Assembly: GCA_947461105.1 (NCBI GenBank)
Contig: CANHIG010000010.1
Coordinates: forward strand, 1 to 35,758
Direction of reading: 5' to 3'
Origin: Bacteroidota bacterium
GTDB taxonomy: Bacteria; Bacteroidota; Bacteroidia; Chitinophagales; LD1
Length of the DNA: 35,758 nucleotides
Positions within the stretch are counted from its first letter, which is position 1. The number at the start of each line of letters is the position of its first letter. This document shows, one piece after another, positions 1,641-9,366 of this stretch. The position numbers and the translations under genes are program-made. The notes below the pieces were generated by a model that did no database searches, was not told where the DNA came from, and saw nothing but the letters and a program-made list of their open reading frames with translations.

Positions 1641-2354
1641 TCAATCCATCTTAGCTTCTTTATAATCATAATATTCCTGCATATTGTTTTGAGCAATATT
1701 CATTCCCATTGCTGATATTTTTAAGGTCAAATTTTCCGTTTGAGGCACATATATTTTCTTGTCAGGTTGTAACAGGTAACGTATATCCAAACTAAATTGT
1801 TCAATTTTAGCAACCAACTTTACCCGGAATGGCTCTGCTGATTTTATAACTATTCTGCTCAAGGTTTTATCCGCTTTATTCAAATAAATGTATCCTGGAA
1901 TATTATCCGCTAAAAAACTGAAGCTTTCCGGCAATGCCTTTTCATTGAAATTAAAACTGAGTACAATTTGGGTTTCGTTTTGAGAAACAATTTTAATCTT
2001 TTGCTCATCAACCAAATCTCCTTTTTGAGTTCTAGCTCTACCTTCCTGTGCATTCATTTGCACCTCCTCCTTTAGTTCCTCCTGAGTAGGCTTTGCTCCG
2101 TTTACTGATAACAATTTCCATTTAGAGCCACTTGGTCTTTGAGGATCATAACTCAAGATTTTTTCGCGCTTTTTATTCTCTTTATCAGTATCAATGATTT
2201 TAATCTTGTAAGCGAATTTTTCCAGATATCGCTCTTCAAACAAATCATTTAAAAACTTCTGAGGCACTTTATACTCACGTAAAATTTGCTGAGGAGTTTG
2301 TGCAAAGGCACTCGAGCTTAACAATGAAAACAGCACAAAGAAAAATCTGGTCAT
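1641..2354 (-). CDS. Secreted protein of unknown function in the PadR/PspC operon
   Basis: I do not recognise a named family. The 237-residue product starts with a clear signal peptide (MTRFFFVLFSLLSSSAFA, then QTPQQ), so it is periplasmic or envelope-associated, with no further membrane segment. The rest is Lys/Glu-rich with alternating beta-type patterning (for example the stretch around IYLNKADKTLSRIVIKSAEPF). This is reminiscent of periplasmic LolA-like or outer-membrane-lipoprotein-sorting folds, but that is only an impression. Its ATG overlaps the stop codon of the PspC gene by one base (TAATG), so the two are translationally coupled and probably act together in the envelope. Confidence 0.7.
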   Translation of the reverse strand: MTRFFFVLFSLLSSSAFAQTPQQILREYKVPQKFLNDLFEERYLEKFAYKIKIIDTDKENKKREKILSYDPQRPSGSKWKLLSVNGAKPTQEELKEEVQMNAQEGRARTQKGDLVDEQKIKIVSQNETQIVLSFNFNEKALPESFSFLADNIPGYIYLNKADKTLSRIVIKSAEPFRVKLVAKIEQFSLDIRYLLQPDKKIYVPQTENLTLKISAMGMNIAQNNMQEYYDYKEAKMD

Positions 2355-4066
2355 TACTTATCGTTTTTATTTGATTCAATTTTAATCACTTTTTTGCCGA
2401 TTTTGATATTTACTTTTTCGTTCTTATCAGATGATTTAATCACAACACTGTCTTTATTAATAATTTGAACAATCTCCTCATCTTCCATTGTATCAGTATC
2501 CTCTTCAACATCATTACACTTTGCGCATGTTAGCTTTCCGTTTTCAACTGAAATAAGATTGCTCGAGAGGTCTTCTTCATCAAACTCTTTTTCGAAGTTA
2601 ACCATATCAAGATTAAAAGAGCTATTAATTTTTACGCTCTTTCCTTGGGGAACATAAAGTGTATAAACTACATCCTGATTCCTGAACTTGGCATTTTTAA
2701 AGACTTCAACCCTTTCGCTCAATTCAAGAGATGAGTCGCCTTGGATAAAACGTGTATGAATCAGATTGATTTGCTTGCGCGCATCAAGCCTATTTCTGCC
2801 AGAGGCAGAAAGGGTTTGCTCCAAATGAAAGAGGGAATCTTCAGAAACAGCAAGCTTTACAGTACTTCTCCCAAATAAAAAACCATTTTCCGTAACCATT
2901 ATATCCCCAAGAAAGGCTTCCACCTCTGTGTATCTTTCAGAAAGTTGAACACTATCTATTGGATTTACATACAATACATTACCAGCCGGTTGTAGCATAC
3001 TTAACTTTTCAGTTTGTGACTCATCTGACTTAAAGTTATTTGCAATAGAAATTGAAAAATAAAAGATGATAGCTAAAGCCAATACCCATAAAGAAGCTGC
3101 TGTAATGGAGATTTTTTTATGGAAAACAACTTTACTTGATGCTATAAAAGTGGCACACAGATACATCAGAAAAAACAATGGCACTCCAATAACCACAAAT
3201 AAGGCAATCGCACTGATAATATAGTAAGTATGAGAATTAAAAATGAGCTGAGTAAAAACAGCAAATTTGGGTAATCCGATTACAGAAAATCCTGCTGCGG
3301 ATACTAGGATTCCAAACAGTATAAATAATGAAATGATGAATACGATAATTGCAACAAACTTCAAGAAACCTTTGGCAATCATAAGTATCAACGTTCCGAG
3401 CTTCGCAATCAAATCATTATCTCTTAATGGCTTATTGATAGCATCCGTAGCTCTGCTCAAAGTCTCTTTTACTTCTTTCTCTATAGTATCAAGATTGACT
3501 GGCTCTCCTTTCATTTGCAGCTTATCTGCATAGGTTTTCGCTTCAGGTATTACCAACCAAAAAACAAGATATACCAGCAAAAATGTTCCGAAACTAAACC
3601 ATAGTAAAACTACAAATGCCAAACGAATCCAAAGCGCCTCTTTAATTCCAAAATAATGACAAAAACCAGCAATTACACCCCCAAGAATTTTACTTTCCGG
3701 ATCACGGAAAAGCTTTTTTGTTGAGTTCTTAGAGGCCGTTGTCTCGCTTTGATTACTTGCTGGTTGAGATTGTTGCTGATTTTCATTTTCGGTAACAGTA
3801 ACATCACCAACAATTTCTTCAGGTTTTCCTAATTGGAATATAATAAAGTCGACATCCTCCATATCTACCACCTGCCTGTTTTTGTCTAGTCGCTTAGAAA
3901 AAACCTCTGCCATCCTATATTCTATATCACTCATGATTTCGCTTCGCTCCTGCTCATTCGTAAATCTGTTTTTCAGTGATTGGATATAGTTGCTCAACTT
4001 GTCGAAAGCTTCCTCATCAATAATAAAAGGCATCCCTCCTAAATGAATATTTATTGTCCTTTTCAT
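2354..4066 (-). CDS. PspC-domain membrane protein with N-terminal helical and C-terminal envelope domains
   Basis: The 570-residue protein has several parts. Residues 1-90 form a charged helical domain ending in FQLGKPEEIVGD, resembling the HAAS-type signalling domains that accompany PadR regulators. Residues 91-115 are a Gln/Ser/Thr-rich linker. A PspC domain lies at about 117-177 (KLFRDPESKILGGVIAGFC, then a helical pair ending VFWLVIPEA). Further membrane segments lie near 225-260, 280-310 and 320-345. A beta-rich extracytoplasmic domain from about 350 to 545 resembles the repetitive adhesin-like or 'toastrack' domain of LiaF/PspC proteins and carries a CAKC pair. PspC proteins sense envelope stress in the phage-shock response. 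The gene is 10 bases downstream of padR and overlaps the next gene by one base. Confidence 0.85.
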   Translation of the reverse strand: MKRTINIHLGGMPFIIDEEAFDKLSNYIQSLKNRFTNEQERSEIMSDIEYRMAEVFSKRLDKNRQVVDMEDVDFIIFQLGKPEEIVGDVTVTENENQQQSQPASNQSETTASKNSTKKLFRDPESKILGGVIAGFCHYFGIKEALWIRLAFVVLLWFSFGTFLLVYLVFWLVIPEAKTYADKLQMKGEPVNLDTIEKEVKETLSRATDAINKPLRDNDLIAKLGTLILMIAKGFLKFVAIIVFIISLFILFGILVSAAGFSVIGLPKFAVFTQLIFNSHTYYIISAIALFVVIGVPLFFLMYLCATFIASSKVVFHKKISITAASLWVLALAIIFYFSISIANNFKSDESQTEKLSMLQPAGNVLYVNPIDSVQLSERYTEVEAFLGDIMVTENGFLFGRSTVKLAVSEDSLFHLEQTLSASGRNRLDARKQINLIHTRFIQGDSSLELSERVEVFKNAKFRNQDVVYTLYVPQGKSVKINSSFNLDMVNFEKEFDEEDLSSNLISVENGKLTCAKCNDVEEDTDTMEDEEIVQIINKDSVVIKSSDKNEKVNIKIGKKVIKIESNKNDK

Positions 4067-4076
4067 GTTTTATAGA

Positions 4077-4409
4077 TTATAATGTTTTGTTTAAAATTTT
4101 TTTAACCGCTTCGCTCAGTTGATTGTATGCTTTCTCTAATTCACTAAGGAAATTTTTTCCTGAATCGGTTAGTGTAAAATACTTTCGAGGCGGCCCTGAG
4201 CTGGACTCTACCCATCTGTATGTGAGCAGTCCCTCATTTTTCAGCCTTGTAAGCAAAGGATAGAGTGTGCCTTCTACAATTAATAATTGTGCTTCTTTAA
4301 GCTCATCAATAATGTCACTGGGATATTTTTCCCCTCCCGACAAAACTGATAGTATGCAAAACTCCAGCACCCCCTTTCGCATTTGCGCTTTACTATTTTC
4401 GATATCCAT
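4077..4409 (-). CDS. PadR family transcriptional regulator
   Basis: A 110-residue winged-helix protein of the short PadR subfamily. The family pattern is clear: an N-terminal helix (MRKGVLEFCILSVLS), the recognition region EGTLYPLLTRLKNEGLL, the wing SSSGPPRKYFTLTDSG, and a C-terminal dimerisation helix. Short PadR proteins usually repress their own operon and respond to envelope-active compounds or to a neighbouring membrane partner. The gene precedes the PspC-domain gene by 10 bases, and PadR followed by a membrane HAAS/PspC partner is a recurring arrangement. It lies 35 bases after the 122-residue secreted protein gene, whose promoter at 4844-4875 may drive all four genes. The short gap upstream holds AT-rich dyads that could be operators. 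Confidence 0.92.
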   Translation of the reverse strand: MDIENSKAQMRKGVLEFCILSVLSGGEKYPSDIIDELKEAQLLIVEGTLYPLLTRLKNEGLLTYRWVESSSGPPRKYFTLTDSGKNFLSELEKAYNQLSEAVKKILNKTL

Positions 4410-4427
4410 CTTTATAAATTAATGATT

Positions 4428-4441
4428 AATAAAATTTTATT
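4428..4441. promoter_or_regulatory. AT-rich perfect palindrome upstream of padR (operator candidate)
   Basis: AATAAAATTTTATT is a perfect 14-base palindrome in the 35-base gap before padR. Next to it is ATTAAT-G-ATTAAT, a second dyad at about 4418-4430. It does not match the classical ATGT-N8-ACAT PadR operator, and AT-rich DNA yields such palindromes by chance. Confidence 0.2.
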
Positions 4442-4444
4442 TGC

Positions 4445-4813
4445 TTACAGCATTCTGAATCTGAGTACAACCCGGTAAGTAGCAGCTGTATTTATCTCAT
4501 CAAGATTGAGCCGCATTTTGGAAAGCTGGTTTTCCACCTCTCTTTTCAATTGCTCATCGTTAGTATCGATTGTCAGAATATTGATTTTGCCACCCTCCTT
4601 TACTTTAAAAGCAACTTCAGCAAAAAATTCCGAGTTGGTTTGTATGAGCAGAAAATCAGGAAACAAAATTTGGGTTTTGATTTCCGTAGAAATTTCCCTT
4701 TCAATCTTTCTTTCTTCTTTGCTTGTATTTGGCCTTGCAGCAAATGCTGTTGTCCCCGTCAGCATCATTAAGGTGAAAAACACTTTTAGTGAATTGTGAA
4801 TTCTCGTTTTCAT
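4445..4813 (-). CDS. Small secreted protein of unknown function, first gene of the PadR/PspC operon
   Basis: A 122-residue product with a signal peptide (about residues 1-26, ending TTAFA before ARPNTSKEE) and a mature part of about 95 residues. The mature part has one charged helix followed by beta-type segments (INILTIDTNDEQLKREVENQ, AATYRVVLRFRML). No family is recognised. The overall form, a short periplasmic domain ending in a strand with a hydrophobic-charged C-terminus, loosely recalls TonB C-terminal-like modules, but the sequence does not prove this. It sits 35 bases upstream of padR and has a well-formed Bacteroidota promoter upstream, so it is probably co-transcribed with the regulator and the PspC protein. 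Confidence 0.65.
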   Translation of the reverse strand: MKTRIHNSLKVFFTLMMLTGTTAFAARPNTSKEERKIEREISTEIKTQILFPDFLLIQTNSEFFAEVAFKVKEGGKINILTIDTNDEQLKREVENQLSKMRLNLDEINTAATYRVVLRFRML

Positions 4814-4843: not shown

Positions 4844-4875
4844 CAAAGATATAATTAAAACAATGAACTATGCAA
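4844..4875 (-). promoter_or_regulatory. Promoter of the PadR/PspC operon
   Basis: On the minus strand TATCTTTG (4844-4851) is an exact match to the Bacteroidota -7 element TAnnTTTG. A TTG -33 core lies at 4873-4875, with a 21-base spacer. Transcription would start about 25 bases before the ATG at 4813. Confidence 0.6.
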
Positions 4876-5035
4876 TAAATAGTACTAAAATAAAATTTAA
4901 ATCATTGATAATCAGAGTGAAAAAATTAGGAACTAGTTAATTTTCTGTTAATAGAGCATAAAAAATCATACGACACAAACGAATAATTGTAGATATTTAC
5001 CTTGAAAAAAAATATTTTCATCACAAAAATTCATC

Positions 5036-6136
5036 ATGAAAAAATCATTACTATTTGGTTTAATGCTCATACTATTGCTACCGCTGAGCATTATAGCACA
5101 AGACTCAGACAAAACCATAAAGGAAGTTGCAGTAAAACCAAAAGACGTAACGCCTGCTGCTGATACCATTTCAAAAAAATGGAGATTCGGTGGCTCTATA
5201 GCTGCAAACTTTGGTCAAGTGGCTCTCGTAAATTGGGCAAATGGTGGTCAAAACTCCATGTCTGTATTGTTTAACGGCAACTTTTTTACCAGATTCAAAA
5301 AAGGGAAATTTGCCTGGGATAATGATTTATCTCTTTCATGGGGATTTATTGCTCAAGGAAAAATCCGTGACGTACAAAAAAACAAATTTCCAATCCGTAA
5401 AAACGTTGATGTGCTTCAACTTACATCAAGATTCGGATATGCGCTAGACAAAAAGAATACTGTATATGTAGCCGGATTACTTGACTTTAGAACACAACTC
5501 ACAAACAGTAACGAATATCCTGGTGACAGTATCAAACGAAGAATTTCATCATTTGCTGCTCCAGCATACCTCACTTTATCACTTGGTATCAATTATAAAC
5601 CTGTAAGCTATTTTTCATTATATGTTTCACCGGTAGCCGGCAAATTGACTTTTGTTACTAAGGATGTTCCCGGAGCTGTAACACTTAATGATATTGATGA
5701 AACCAGATACGGTCTTGACCTTGGTAAAACCATGCGCGCAGAAATTGGGGCATATATCAGAGCAGACTTTCAAAAAGACATCTTTAAAAATGTAAACCTG
5801 AAAACATCGGTTGAGCTATTCCAAAACTACACTGAGAAGAAAAAGCTTGATTTATTAGTTGATGAAGAGATAAAAGCAATTACAGACGCAGGAGGAACAC
5901 CAAGTCAGGATTTACTGAACAAACAATACTACGACAACAGAAAAAATACGGATGTAAACTGGACCACAGCAATTACTTTTAAAATCAATAAATTCCTGCA
6001 AGCCTCTTTAGAAACTCAATTAATTTATGACCATGATATTGTACTTCCAAAATACAGAGGTGACGGCACAGAATACAAAGGACGAGGCACACAATTTCGT
6101 GAAGGATTTAACCTTGGAATCGGATATAAATTCTAA
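5036..6136 (+). CDS. DUF3078 family outer-membrane-type protein
   Basis: The 366-residue protein has a signal peptide (MKKSLLFGLMLILLLPLSIIA, then QDSDK) and the characteristic DUF3078 start of the mature domain (WRFGGSIAANFGQVALVNWA, then GGQNSMS). The remainder alternates aromatic and polar residues in many short strands and ends in an aromatic residue (NLGIGYKF), the hallmark of an outer-membrane beta-barrel C-terminus. DUF3078 proteins are widespread in Bacteroidota and their function is unknown; the barrel form is inference. The gene stands alone, divergent from the PadR operon and followed by a strong terminator at 6160-6190. The upstream TACCTTGA near 4999 is only a poor match to a -7 element. 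Confidence 0.88.
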   Translation: MKKSLLFGLMLILLLPLSIIAQDSDKTIKEVAVKPKDVTPAADTISKKWRFGGSIAANFGQVALVNWANGGQNSMSVLFNGNFFTRFKKGKFAWDNDLSLSWGFIAQGKIRDVQKNKFPIRKNVDVLQLTSRFGYALDKKNTVYVAGLLDFRTQLTNSNEYPGDSIKRRISSFAAPAYLTLSLGINYKPVSYFSLYVSPVAGKLTFVTKDVPGAVTLNDIDETRYGLDLGKTMRAEIGAYIRADFQKDIFKNVNLKTSVELFQNYTEKKKLDLLVDEEIKAITDAGGTPSQDLLNKQYYDNRKNTDVNWTTAITFKINKFLQASLETQLIYDHDIVLPKYRGDGTEYKGRGTQFREGFNLGIGYKF

Positions 6137-6289: not shown

Positions 6290-7300
6290 ATGGAAATTAT
6301 AGGAAGTTCGCAATCAGTAGATATTGCAGCGCTCAATGAAAAAATAAACAGAGAAAGCGCATTCGTAGATGTATTAAATCTGGAGCTGAGCAAAACAGTT
6401 GTGGGACAGAAATACATGATAGAAAGATTACTCGTTGCAGTTCTTGCAAATGGTCATATTCTACTCGAAGGTCTGCCGGGATTGGCAAAAACGCTTTCCA
6501 TTAAATCTCTTTCAAAGGCTATCAATGCTAAGTTCTCGAGAGTTCAGTTTACTCCTGATTTGCTACCAGCAGATATTATCGGAACGATGATTTACAATCA
6601 AAAAGACAATGACTTCATCGTAAAGAAAGGGCCGATTTTTGCAAACTTTATTTTAGCAGATGAAATCAACCGTGCTCCGGCAAAAGTTCAGTCTGCATTG
6701 CTAGAAGCTATGCAAGAACGACAGGTTACCATCGGAGAAAATAGCTACAAACTAGATGAACCATTTTTAGTTTTGGCTACTCAAAATCCTATTGAGCAAG
6801 AAGGTACTTACCCACTTCCCGAGGCTCAGGTAGATCGTTTTATGCTAAAGGTTGTTATTAACTATCCCAAAAAAGAGGAGGAGCAATTGATTATCCGTCA
6901 GAATATGGCTTTGGAAATGAAACCAATCAATACAGTAGTAGATAAAGAAGCCATAATGATTGCACGACAAACTGTGCGGGAAGTATACATGGATGACAAA
7001 ATTGAAAAATATATTTTGGACATCGTGTTTGCATCAAGAAATCCTGAAGAATATAAGCTGAATAAAATCAAGCAATTTATCAGCTATGGTGGTTCACCAA
7101 GAGCAAGTATAAATCTTGCATTGGCTTCAAAAGCATATGCGTTTATCAAACGAAGAGGCTACGTAATTCCGGAAGATGTGAGAGCTGTATGCTATGATGT
7201 AATGCGTCACAGAATAGGACTTACATACGAAGCTGAAGCCGAAAATATCAAGCCTGATGAAATAATCAGTGAAATATTGAACACTGTAGAGGTTCCATAG
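6290..7300 (+). CDS. MoxR family AAA+ ATPase of the bat operon
   Basis: A 336-residue MoxR-type AAA+ ATPase. Visible motifs are Walker A GLPGLAKT (61-68), Walker B FILADEINRAP (120-130), sensor 1 LATQNPIEQEGTYPLPEAQ, the arginine-finger region DRFMLKV, and a C-terminal lid with GGSPRAS. MoxR ATPases act as chaperone-like remodelers that work with VWA-domain proteins encoded beside them. Here the partners would be the DUF58, BatA and BatB proteins that follow. It is the first gene of the run; the 68-base gap to the DUF58 gene and shared orientation indicate one operon. In Bacteroidota such loci were linked to oxygen tolerance (bat, Bacteroides aerotolerance). Confidence 0.93.
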   Translation: MEIIGSSQSVDIAALNEKINRESAFVDVLNLELSKTVVGQKYMIERLLVAVLANGHILLEGLPGLAKTLSIKSLSKAINAKFSRVQFTPDLLPADIIGTMIYNQKDNDFIVKKGPIFANFILADEINRAPAKVQSALLEAMQERQVTIGENSYKLDEPFLVLATQNPIEQEGTYPLPEAQVDRFMLKVVINYPKKEEEQLIIRQNMALEMKPINTVVDKEAIMIARQTVREVYMDDKIEKYILDIVFASRNPEEYKLNKIKQFISYGGSPRASINLALASKAYAFIKRRGYVIPEDVRAVCYDVMRHRIGLTYEAEAENIKPDEIISEILNTVEVP

Positions 7301-7368
7301 TCGTTGAAGAAATTTAGTTTTCAGAATCTGCTGTTCTCAAAAAAATCAAGAGTGAGTAAGTAATAAAC

Positions 7369-8367
7369 ATGAGTGCCACTGTCGTCATATCAATTTTAAT
7401 TGGACTAGCTATAATAACTATAGCTGCAGTAGCTGTCTTGTTTTTTCTTGCCAATAAAAACAGAAGCAGTGAAGCCTCTATACAACAAACAAATACAAAT
7501 GAAAAGAAGGCTCATATCCGCAGAATCGAAATAGTAACCAGAAAACTTACTAATCAGGTTTTTGCCGGAAGTTACCATTCTGCTTTTAAGGGAAGAGGGA
7601 TGTCTTTTTCCGAGGTGCGTGAATACCAATATGGCGATGATGTGAGAACTATTGACTGGAATGTTACTGCCAGAGGAGGTAAACCATACATCAAAGTTTA
7701 CGATGAGGAAAGAGAACTAACTATGATGCTTTTGATTGATGTGAGTCGCTCTACGCTATTTGGCACTCAAAATGAGTTCAAAAAAGAAATCATTGAAATC
7801 ATAAGTGGCATTTTTGCGTTTTCTGCGATCACTAATAACGATAAAGTGGGTGTGATTTTCTTTAGCGATAAAGTAGAAAAATATATCCCGCCCCAAAAAG
7901 GCAAAACACACATTCTGAGAATCATTTCAGAAATAGATGGATTTGAATCTACTTCAAAGGGAACAGACATCAAATCTGCTTTGCATTTTTTCAATAATGT
8001 AAACAAGAAGAAATCAATTGCATTTATCATTTCCGATTTTATCAGCGAAAGGAATTTTGAAAAAGAACTCGCTGTAGTAGCCCGAAAACATGATTTCATA
8101 GGCATTCAGGTGTTCGATAAATTTGAAGAATTGATGGAAGACGCTGGTTTGATAATGATGCAGGATAATGAAACCGGACAGAGCATGTATGTAAACACCT
8201 CTGATAAAAGCATACATAAACAAGCAAAATCTGCGTTTGAAAAAAGACAAAAAGAAACTAAAAATCTGTTTCAAAAGTCAGGAGCGCAGTTCGTTTCAAT
8301 TGCAACAACTGATAATTACGTAAAGTCACTGATTCAAATGTTTCAGGAAAGAGGTTCAAGAAGATAA
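7369..8367 (+). CDS. DUF58 protein with VWA-like fold and extra N-terminal membrane anchor
   Basis: A 332-residue DUF58 protein. The signature stretch GSYHSAFKGRGMSFSEVREY, then QYGDDVRTIDWNVTARGGKP, is conserved. A VWA-like MIDAS motif follows (LIDVSRSTLF, DxSxS form) with a later GTD. DUF58 proteins accompany MoxR and VWA proteins and are thought to be MoxR partners. Unusually, residues 5-28 form a hydrophobic helix (VVISILIGLAIITIAAVAVL) followed by a polar linker. Most bat-operon DUF58 proteins begin close to the RRIEI segment (here about residue 50) and are soluble, so this one looks tethered to the inner membrane. The ATG at 7369 is the only sensible start that keeps the helix. Confidence 0.9.
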   Translation: MSATVVISILIGLAIITIAAVAVLFFLANKNRSSEASIQQTNTNEKKAHIRRIEIVTRKLTNQVFAGSYHSAFKGRGMSFSEVREYQYGDDVRTIDWNVTARGGKPYIKVYDEERELTMMLLIDVSRSTLFGTQNEFKKEIIEIISGIFAFSAITNNDKVGVIFFSDKVEKYIPPQKGKTHILRIISEIDGFESTSKGTDIKSALHFFNNVNKKKSIAFIISDFISERNFEKELAVVARKHDFIGIQVFDKFEELMEDAGLIMMQDNETGQSMYVNTSDKSIHKQAKSAFEKRQKETKNLFQKSGAQFVSIATTDNYVKSLIQMFQERGSRR

Positions 8368-8373
8368 TATAAA

Positions 8374-9366
8374 ATGAAAGTAGTTAGTAATAAAAATAAG
8401 GCTTTAAAATATGCAATGAGAACATGGCTTTTGTTCTTATCGATTAGCACATTAAGTACCGTAAATATTGCAGCGCAAGTTTCAGTAAGCTTCAGAGCAG
8501 ATTCTAACAAAATCATGATTGGTGACCCTCTGAAATTTAAACTTGTTATTCAAAAGCCAGCCAAGACAACTATTGAGTTTCCAAATTTCGCAGGAGATAC
8601 TATTGCCAAGCTGGAAATATTTGAAAAAGGAAAGATTGATACCGCAACTATAAATGATAAAATAGTTTTATCGCAGACTGTTACGCTGTCTGCTTATGAT
8701 TCCGGAACTTATCACATATCAGCATTTCCGGTTTTTTTCGTTACAGAACAAAAAACTACTGACTCAGCTCTTTCAAATGAGTTTGACGTATTCGTTTCTA
8801 CACTTGATGTAGACACTTCAAAACCGATAAAACCCATCAAAGCTCCGATGGATGTACCTTATGTAATTCAGGAGTTCAAATGGTGGATTTTAGCAGCTCT
8901 GCTCCTTATATCTGCTCTTGTTGCTTATCTACTTTACAGAAAATACAGGAAAAAACCTGCTGCCACTGATGAGAAGCCCCGACCTAAAGAACCTGCTCAT
9001 ATATGGGCTATAAACGAGTTAACCAAACTAGATAATGAAAAGCTTTGGCAATCTGATCAACATAAAAAATTCTATTCTCGCCTGAGTGATATCCTGAGAT
9101 TATACCTTGAATATCGCTTCGATATTTATGCTATGGAATCTACAACTGATGAAATAGAAACACTGATTGCAGATTTAAAACTGAAAAATGAGTACAGGAA
9201 CAGATTGCTTGAAACACTTCGCTTATCAGACTTTGCAAAGTTTGCAAAGATGACTCCAATGCCTGATCAAAACATGAGAAGTATGGAAAATGCCAAAGCA
9301 TTTGTAGAACATACCAAGCCAAACGAACAGGAATTATTAAACCAACAAACTGGAGAGATAAAATAG
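8374..9366 (+). CDS. BatD-like membrane protein (short, single membrane segment) of the bat operon
   Basis: A 330-residue envelope protein. A signal peptide lies near residues 15-35 (MRTWLLFLSI to IAAQ). A periplasmic beta domain (VSVSFRADSNKIMIGDPLKF) matches the opening of BatD-type repeats. One membrane helix lies at about 168-188 (WWILAALLLISALVAYLLY), followed by a cytoplasmic helical domain (ELTKLDNEKLWQ, then HKKFYSRLSDILRLYLEYRF) of the DUF4381/BatD C-terminal kind. Proteins like this are often encoded between DUF58 and batA in Bacteroidota. It is only about half the length of true BatD. The gene starts 6 bases after DUF58, and its stop codon abuts the batA ATG (TAGATG), so translation is probably coupled. 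Confidence 0.8.
   Translation: MKVVSNKNKALKYAMRTWLLFLSISTLSTVNIAAQVSVSFRADSNKIMIGDPLKFKLVIQKPAKTTIEFPNFAGDTIAKLEIFEKGKIDTATINDKIVLSQTVTLSAYDSGTYHISAFPVFFVTEQKTTDSALSNEFDVFVSTLDVDTSKPIKPIKAPMDVPYVIQEFKWWILAALLLISALVAYLLYRKYRKKPAATDEKPRPKEPAHIWAINELTKLDNEKLWQSDQHKKFYSRLSDILRLYLEYRFDIYAMESTTDEIETLIADLKLKNEYRNRLLETLRLSDFAKFAKMTPMPDQNMRSMENAKAFVEHTKPNEQELLNQQTGEIK

What the first reader, a model, noticed from the sequence alone, without database searches (positions are those of the whole stretch)
1641..4813. PadR, HAAS-like/PspC/envelope-domain protein and two secreted partners in one operon
One promoter (4844-4875) can drive a small secreted protein, a PadR regulator, a PspC-domain protein with helical N-terminal and beta-rich C-terminal domains, and another secreted protein. 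Overlaps and gaps are tight. This suggests a sensing loop: the envelope domain senses damage, the cytoplasmic helical domain controls PadR, and the secreted proteins act in the periplasm. PadR-linked membrane partners are known computationally; the two secreted partners here are undescribed to me.
Basis: partly seen in the sequence, partly recalled or inferred. Interest (0 to 1): 0.5.

Follow-up and report, generated by a model that had tools for sequence, protein, structure and literature searches.

The report
Self-repressed envelope-stress operon with TonB-like domain
A repressor gene, a membrane-sensor gene and a gene for a small secreted protein shaped like the tip of TonB share one bacterial promoter with a conserved DNA control site over it, which makes a poorly understood kind of envelope-stress switch directly testable.

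Summary
The operon is real: four same-strand genes, gaps of 35 and 10 nt, then a 1-nt overlap. The 570-aa protein is HAAS-PspC-LiaI/LiaF-TM-Toastrack, as described for HAAS-PadR systems (PMC11237479). PadR lies upstream of it in 81 of 81 loci (window plus relatives) and 80 of 80 named loci (sets overlap). New here: (1) an inverted repeat, GTACTATG-TATTG-CATAGTAC, covers the -33 element; 64 of 81 loci have it within 3 mismatches, the reversed pattern in none. The window genome has one copy, at 4865-4885. I read it as the PadR operator. (2) The 122-aa protein is predicted to be a secreted domain with the TonB/TolA C-terminal fold; a homologue precedes PadR in 33 of 81 loci, and 5 of 6 detached paralogues carry the same site. 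(3) In some other genomes the site precedes TonB-dependent-receptor-like barrels. (4) Charge bias puts Toastrack in the periplasm, against the published proposal. The 237-aa protein is not a conserved partner. Most likely mechanism: PadR represses its own operon and is released through the HAAS domain of the membrane sensor. Sequence supports the operator and regulon; PadR binding, HAAS-PadR contact and the signal are inferred.

The parts
4865..4885 (-). Inverted repeat GTACTATT-TATTG-CATAGTTC, proposed PadR operator; the central TTG (4873-4875) is the -33 element
   Evidence: only site at up to 3 mismatches in the held window genome; consensus conserved in 64 of 81 loci at up to 3 mismatches, reversed pattern 0 of 81
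4844..4851 (-). -7 box TATCTTTG
   Evidence: read; begins 13 nt after the operator, as in 51 of 74 loci
4445..4813 (-). 122-aa protein with signal-peptide-like start and TonB/TolA C-terminal-domain fold
   Evidence: profile hits TonB chains, best E 0.0017; AlphaFold model pLDDT 84; structure match Z 8.0
4077..4409 (-). PadR family regulator, 110 aa
   Evidence: PF03551, E 7e-19
2354..4066 (-). 570-aa membrane protein HAAS-PspC-LiaI/LiaF-TM-Toastrack
3797..4066 (-). HAAS region (residues 1-90), GxP at residues 80-82
   Evidence: PF22564 15.5 bits, under cut-off; 51 of 53 orthologous N-termini hit it; GxP in 74 of 76
3539..3718 (-). PspC domain (residues 117-176)
   Evidence: PF04024 E 9.7e-18
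3032..3412 (-). LiaI-LiaF-TM region (residues 219-345)
   Evidence: PF22571 E 1.1e-12; helices 217-262, 279-309, 317-343 in the model
2510..2860 (-). Toastrack (Pfam match residues 403-519; beta domain of the model 347-566)
   Evidence: PF22744 E 2.9e-14; Foldseek 3ljy/4opw/3pet/4qrk
1641..2354 (-). 237-aa protein with signal-peptide-like start, unknown family, start codon overlaps the stop of the 570-aa gene; accessory, not a conserved partner
5036..6136 (+). Divergent DUF3078 protein; neighbour, not shown to be regulated by the operator
   Evidence: PF11276 E 3.4e-19; divergent relative in 27 of 81 loci

Best explanation
A HAAS-PadR envelope-stress switch without PspA. PadR binds the inverted repeat at 4865-4885, which spans the -33 element, and represses its own operon. 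The 570-aa protein sits in the inner membrane with HAAS in the cytoplasm and Toastrack in the periplasm. A membrane or periplasmic disturbance alters HAAS, which takes PadR off the operator. The operon then makes more sensor and repressor (feedback) and exports the 122-aa TonB-CTD-like protein (and the 237-aa protein) to the periplasm. Shown by sequence: domains, gene order, conservation and geometry of the site, the same site on detached paralogues. Predicted: the fold of the 122-aa protein, the topology. Inferred: PadR binds and represses at this site, HAAS contacts PadR, the signal is envelope stress, the 122-aa protein works where TonB or Tol systems meet the outer membrane.
For: PadR upstream of the sensor gene in 81 of 81 and 80 of 80 loci. 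HAAS in 51 of 53 N-termini, GxP in 74 of 76. Site within 3 mismatches in 64 of 81 loci, reversed pattern 0 of 81, -7 box 12-13 nt after it in 61 of 74; arm score of 14 or more in 50 of 81 loci and in 0 of 4,050 shuffles. Site present in 108 of 118 relatives with the gene and 6 of 31 without; phylum sample 61 of 70 against 31 of 226. Same site about 60-63 nt before 5 of 6 detached TonB-CTD-like paralogues and before a second HAAS-PspC gene that has no PadR in the stretch read (L320). Loop charges put Toastrack outside. Precedent: Listeria LltR, whose operon (PadR, DUF1700 membrane protein, DUF4097 exoprotein) rises about 107- to 151-fold in the mutant, with liaI up 3.8-fold (PMC6624303, passages).
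Against: No binding, expression or interaction data. The window's own HAAS score is under the cut-off and missed in two of three scans. The window's site departs from the consensus at 2 positions. In Listeria the DUF1048 partner LftS was not needed for repression of lieAB by LftR (PMC4517056, passages). 31 of 226 phylum genomes without the HAAS protein also have a match. The 122-aa family is absent from this position in 48 of 81 loci, is not found in the same-genus genome G001, and 11 stand-alone homologues elsewhere have no site. PMC11237479 argues that Toastrack is intracellular (section 27). Pfam does not place the window's 122-aa protein in TonB_C.
Confidence: 0.6

Rival explanations
1. 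PadR responds to a small molecule itself, as some PadR proteins do, and the HAAS-PspC-Toastrack protein is only an output that stabilises the membrane, not the sensor.
For: In Listeria LftR represses lieAB with or without LftS, and a title in the listing reports ligand-induced regulation of LftR (PMC4517056 passages; PMC6457526 title). PSP proteins are known membrane stabilisers (PMC11237479 abstract).
Against: HAAS was reported always to travel with a PadR gene (PMC11237479 section 28); here PadR is upstream in 81 of 81 loci and GxP is kept in 74 of 76, which a pure effector would not need.
Confidence: 0.22
2. The inverted repeat is the site of another regulator, not of the neighbouring PadR.
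For: No binding data; 31 of 226 phylum genomes without the HAAS protein and 6 of 31 such relatives have a match at up to 3 mismatches.
Against: Presence follows the HAAS-PspC gene genome by genome; the held window genome has one site, at the PadR operon.
Confidence: 0.08
3. The 122-aa TonB-CTD-like gene is a passenger under this promoter with no role in the switch.
For: Found at this position in 33 of 81 loci only; not found in the same-genus genome G001; stand-alone homologues elsewhere have no site; Flavobacteriaceae have another gene there.
Against: Five of six detached paralogues carry the same site about 60-63 nt upstream, so the regulation has been kept apart from the operon.
Confidence: 0.1

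Closest known systems
HAAS-PadR-like wHTH systems, theme (i) (PMC11237479; sections 27 and 28 and passages read, supplements not read)
   Different: Here with a conserved inverted repeat over the -33 element, a TonB-CTD-like secreted gene ahead of PadR, and a charge pattern that puts Toastrack in the periplasm. The words operator, palindrom- and TonB do not occur in the paper's main text.
Listeria LltR operon lmo0599-lmo0600-lmo0601 (PMC6624303, passages read)
   Same: PadR, a DUF1700 (HAAS-type) membrane protein and a DUF4097 (Toastrack-type) exoprotein in one operon; strong derepression in the mutant.
   Different: Gram-positive; HAAS and Toastrack in separate proteins; no TonB-like protein named in the passages seen.
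Lia and classical Psp envelope-stress systems (from PMC11237479)
   Different: PadR in place of LiaRS or PspF; no PspA match in the held genome.
TonB and TolA C-terminal domains
   Same: Predicted fold and weak profile match.
   Different: Free secreted domain without the membrane anchor or proline-rich linker of TonB (the linker is recalled as a TonB feature).

Membership tests
HAAS-PadR system (PMC11237479) | HAAS domain | tested here: met
   51 of 53 orthologous N-termini match PF22564; the window's own is 15.5 bits, under the cut-off of 27, and unreported
HAAS-PadR system (PMC11237479) | GxP motif at the third helix | tested here: met
   GKP at residues 80-82 after the helix 69-79 of the model; GxP in 74 of 76 orthologues
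HAAS-PadR system (PMC11237479) | Stand-alone PadR gene next door | tested here: met
   10-nt gap in the window; upstream on the same strand in 81 of 81 loci, gap at most 102 nt in 78 of them; in L077, L125 and L139 the sensor frame is in two pieces
[quoted passage not shown]
   three Pfam matches over cut-off
HAAS-PadR system (PMC11237479) | Toastrack intracellular (a proposal of the paper) | tested here: inconclusive
   loop charges over 76 sequences favour the periplasm; no experiment
HAAS-PadR system (PMC11237479) | HAAS controls PadR | not testable with these tools
   needs an interaction or genetic test
Classical Psp/Lia system | PspA | tested here: not met
   0 matches to PF04012 in the held genome, 87.65% complete; control found it in 9 of 14 genomes
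TonB protein | TonB C-terminal domain | tested here: inconclusive
   fold and PDB profile agree, but the window member has no TonB_C hit; 4 of 29 relatives hit PF03544, best 8.5e-5, and 10 of 29 hit DUF4891 weakly
TonB protein | Membrane anchor and proline-rich linker (recalled) | tested here: not met
   122 aa: signal-peptide-like start, then the domain; no proline-rich linker in the sequence
Autorepressed PadR operon | Operator over the operon promoter | tested here: met
   conserved inverted repeat over the -33 element; binding not tested

The most novel reading that the evidence does not exclude
Across Bacteroidia a PspA-free HAAS-PadR circuit with its own operator watches the TonB/outer-membrane interface: the sensor's Toastrack hangs in the periplasm, and the regulon makes free, unanchored TonB-CTD-like domains together with TonB-dependent-receptor-like barrels, so that the free domains cap, compete for or report on receptor TonB boxes when energisation or the outer membrane fails.
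Probability: 0.15. Interest if true: 0.8.

Novelty: new variant of a known kind. Interest (0 to 1): 0.55.

Why it matters
HAAS-PadR pairs were proposed as an alternative to two-component systems in membrane stress, but the main text of that paper names no operator. The inverted repeat found here runs from the window's lineage to Flavobacteriaceae, lets regulon members be read from sequence, and can be tested in cultivable genera. It also links the switch to a free TonB-CTD-like protein and, in some genomes, to receptor-like barrels, which bears on how Bacteroidota guard their outer membrane.

Tried and rejected
237-aa protein: no Pfam hit and one chance-level NCBIfam hit; of four homologues scanned three had no Pfam hit and one a sub-threshold Peptidase_M61_N match, E 0.01; PDB profile search gave one chance match, E 2.3. 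It matched 3 other genomes of 149 relatives and 4 other of 345 phylum genomes, three of these being partial matches inside frames of 640-1400 aa. The two structure jobs went to the other proteins, so its fold is open.

Classical PSP membership: rejected for lack of a PspA match. Single-sequence Pfam and NCBIfam of the 122-aa protein gave only sub-threshold hits.

The 122-aa family is not confined to this operon: in the phylum sample (53 of 345 genomes) many hits are parts of proteins of about 700 aa. Of the 30 loci fetched there only the window's own showed PadR or PspC in its flanks, and 11 short stand-alone ones have no site at up to 4 mismatches.

Sites that look like chance among the 20 extra regions fetched: L310, L319, L321, L328. 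One of 6 detached paralogues, G037:C8, has no site. Reversed-pattern hits occur in some genomes, so matches at 3 mismatches include noise. My shuffles keep dinucleotides only approximately. The Fisher tests ignore relatedness; their cell counts were taken by hand.

Structure search of the 570-aa model: Toastrack entries lead Foldseek with E about 0.002 and none at or under 0.001; in VIA they reach Z 5.0 or less among unrelated matches, so the Pfam match is the better evidence. The HAAS fold was not confirmed by structure search (inconclusive).

Samples: the 81 loci are the window plus loci of 80 other genomes, out of 118 (window's included) with a match among 149 searched. The first genome-contig scan confirmed no relative.

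Literature: six operator strings, 0 papers; PadR/Bacteroidetes/PspC domain, 15 listed of 372, only PMC11237479 relevant by title; PspC domain/PadR family/Flavobacterium, 3 papers, unrelated by title. The library holds open-licence PMC papers only, so a description elsewhere is possible.
Full report
Observation. The four genes are present as stated on the minus strand at 1641-4813. Spacing is 35 nt, 10 nt and a 1-nt TAATG overlap. The named promoter at 4844-4875 is TTG (4875-4873) and TATCTTTG (4851-4844), 21 nt apart, which fits the Bacteroidota -33/-7 consensus as I recall it.

The 570-aa protein. Pfam finds PspC, LiaI-LiaF-TM_PspC and Toast-rack_PspC-Cterm over their cut-offs. HAAS is weak in the window's own protein: 15.5 bits against a cut-off of 27 when the N-terminus is scanned alone, and not reported at E<=1 in the full-length scan or in the search of its genome. 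Its orthologues settle the matter: 51 of 53 N-termini hit HAAS, best 6.3e-10, and 27 of 80 genomes have a match over the cut-off. The GxP motif named for HAAS (PMC11237479, section 28) is kept in 74 of 76 full-length orthologues. The AlphaFold model (pLDDT 84, pTM 0.56, 76 sequences) shows a beta hairpin with three helices, the PspC helical pair, long helices at 217-262, 279-309 and 317-343, then a beta domain. Its best PDB matches are Toastrack entries 3ljy, 4opw, 3pet and 4qrk, best E about 0.002.

Topology. Over 76 sequences the loop 306-320, between the second and third long helices, averages 3.6 K+R and 0.2 D+E; the loop 258-282, between the first and second, averages 0.7 and 1.4. By the positive-inside rule Toastrack is then in the periplasm, and HAAS in the cytoplasm if the PspC pair returns to the same side. 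Two downstream proteins of relatives that I scanned (L071, L074) are DUF2807, a Toastrack-type family in the paper's terms, over cut-off, and start like lipoproteins to my eye. PMC11237479 argues for an intracellular Toastrack (section 27). I call this inferred, not settled.

PadR linkage. The set is the window plus loci of 80 other genomes, out of 118 with a match (window's included) among 149 searched. PadR is upstream on the same strand in 81 of 81; the gap is at most 102 nt in 78, and in L077, L125 and L139 the sensor frame is in two pieces. In 80 named loci, largely Flavobacteriaceae, it is upstream in 80 of 80.

Operator. Upstream of the first gene most loci show an inverted repeat, GTACTATG-TATTG-CATAGTAC. 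At least 14 of 16 arm positions match in 50 of 81 loci and at least 12 in 63; shuffles reach 14 in 0 of 4,050 and 12 in 0.9%. In the stretch 250-1,300 nt upstream of PspC, 64 of 81 loci have a site with at most 3 mismatches and 74 with at most 5; the reversed pattern gives 0 at up to 4 and 1 at 5. Of the 7 loci over 5 mismatches, L072, L075 and L079 come from genomes (G007, G010, G014) with a site 5-6 kb upstream, before the TonB-CTD-like gene; in one of them that I read, G010, the genes run on to PadR and PspC (L324). L081 is cut by the contig end; in L125 the site lies further up, before PadR; L099 and L124 have 6 mismatches. A TAnnTTTG box begins 13 nt after the site in 51 of 74 loci and 12 nt after in 10. 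The TTG in the repeat's centre is the -33 element, so a protein bound there would block the promoter. Of the 80 named loci 68 hold a site at up to 3 mismatches somewhere in the fetched DNA; the reversed pattern gives 1 site in all.

Whole genomes. The held window genome (2.51 Mb, 87.65% complete) has one site at up to 3 mismatches, 4865-4885. Of 149 relatives 114 have a site: 108 of 118 with a match to the 570-aa protein and 6 of 31 without (p 5e-15). In a phylum sample of 296 genomes, 61 of 70 with the HAAS-type N-terminus and 31 of 226 without have a site (p 4e-30). These tests ignore relatedness, and the 31 show that 3-mismatch hits include noise.

The 122-aa protein. A profile of 29 relatives hits TonB chains in the PDB: best E 0.0017, first 11 of 14 rows. 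The model (pLDDT 84) aligns to TonB, FusB and TolA C-terminal domains: 23 rows at Z 8.0 to 5.6, next, unrelated, row 4.0. Foldseek agrees weakly, best E 0.011. Pfam on the 29 members gave TonB_C for 4 (best 8.5e-5) and DUF4891 for 10 (best 0.0025), none for the window's own. A mature-domain profile finds 39 family ORFs, in 33 of 81 loci, upstream of PadR on the same strand; the best reversed decoy had E 0.4. Six loci have two copies. In the window's family 19 of 29 loci have it beside PadR, and G007, G010 and G014 have it 5-6 kb upstream with its own site. A single-sequence search found it in 27 of 149 relatives, not in the same-genus genome G001. Six copies in that search are detached from PspC: G004:C3, G007:C7, G010:C12, G012:C280 and G014:C241 have the site about 60-63 nt before the start, G037:C8 has none. 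This ties the protein to the same control site independently of gene order. Against a universal link, 11 stand-alone homologues from the wider phylum have no site.

Other genes with the site. Of 20 further regions my reading is: 7 have it before an outer-membrane barrel of about 810 aa (L309, L311, L312, L316, L318, L323, L324), 4 before the TonB-CTD-like gene (L324 again, L325-L327), 1 before a second HAAS-PspC gene without PadR nearby (L320), 4 before small secreted or lipoprotein-like genes (L313-L315, L322), 1 before a 146-aa protein (L317), and 4 look like chance. The barrels are homologous to each other. Four barrels were scanned: two with the site (L309, L324) and two lying after PspC (L066, the same-genus genome, and L143); all match OMP_b-brl_3 and three also a TonB-dependent-receptor plug. 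The genus of G010 has an ABC ATPase and an ABC2/M1-peptidase protein between the TonB-CTD-like gene and PadR in the locus read (L324). In the 11 flavobacterial loci I looked at, a 148-179 aa membrane-protein-like gene follows the site instead. The window genome's own barrel homologues (best 40% identical) have no site at this threshold.

The 237-aa protein. Its start overlaps the stop of the 570-aa gene, but it has no known family, and its homologues are few; those examined are not beside PspC. The slot after PspC varies: DUF2807 protein, RDD protein, barrel, or this gene. I do not count it as core.

Mechanism. The best reading is autorepression by PadR at the -33 element, relieved through HAAS when the membrane sensor is disturbed, with the TonB-CTD-like protein as exported output. 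Listeria LltR is the precedent: its operon genes rise about 107- to 151-fold in the mutant and liaI 3.8-fold (PMC6624303, passages). Listeria LftR/LftS is a caution: the DUF1048 partner was not needed for repression of lieAB (PMC4517056, passages). Binding, contact, signal and the target of the TonB-like domain are untested.

Verdict. A member of the published HAAS-PadR kind in a variant form: a control site that my searches did not find in print, a TonB-CTD-like secreted partner, and, in other genomes, receptor-like barrels under the same site.

Noticed in passing
window 5036-6136 (+): A DUF3078 protein is divergent to the operon; a relative is divergent in 27 of 81 loci. Whether the site at 4865-4885 also governs it is open.
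   Followed up: partly
window 6290-9366 (+): Next to DUF3078 lies a run that looks by eye like MoxR ATPase, DUF58 and a BatD-like protein, a Bat-type operon.
   Followed up: no
L324:2727-11366: In genome G010 the genes run TonB-CTD-like, ABC ATPase, ABC2/M1-peptidase, PadR, HAAS-PspC, RDD, DUF2807-like, with a barrel divergent and sites on both sides.
   Followed up: partly
L314:2252-2434 and L315:2263-2445: Similar 60-aa secreted-looking peptides follow the site and a -7 box in two genomes.
   Followed up: no
L320:1800-2521: A second, short HAAS-PspC gene has the site 80 nt upstream but no PadR in the 5-kb stretch, which suggests control in trans.
   Followed up: no
L083:4364-4639, L085:7009-7281, L089:7028-7291, L091:2311-2568, L092:4390-4650, L093:1909-2172: Six loci carry a second, shorter (85-91 aa) member of the small secreted family between the first copy and PadR.
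   Followed up: partly
L206, L210, L214, L219, L224, L226, L228, L239, L260, L266, L270: In these flavobacterial loci the first gene after the site is a 148-179 aa protein that looks like a multi-helix membrane protein (DUF4870-like by recall, not scanned).
   Followed up: no
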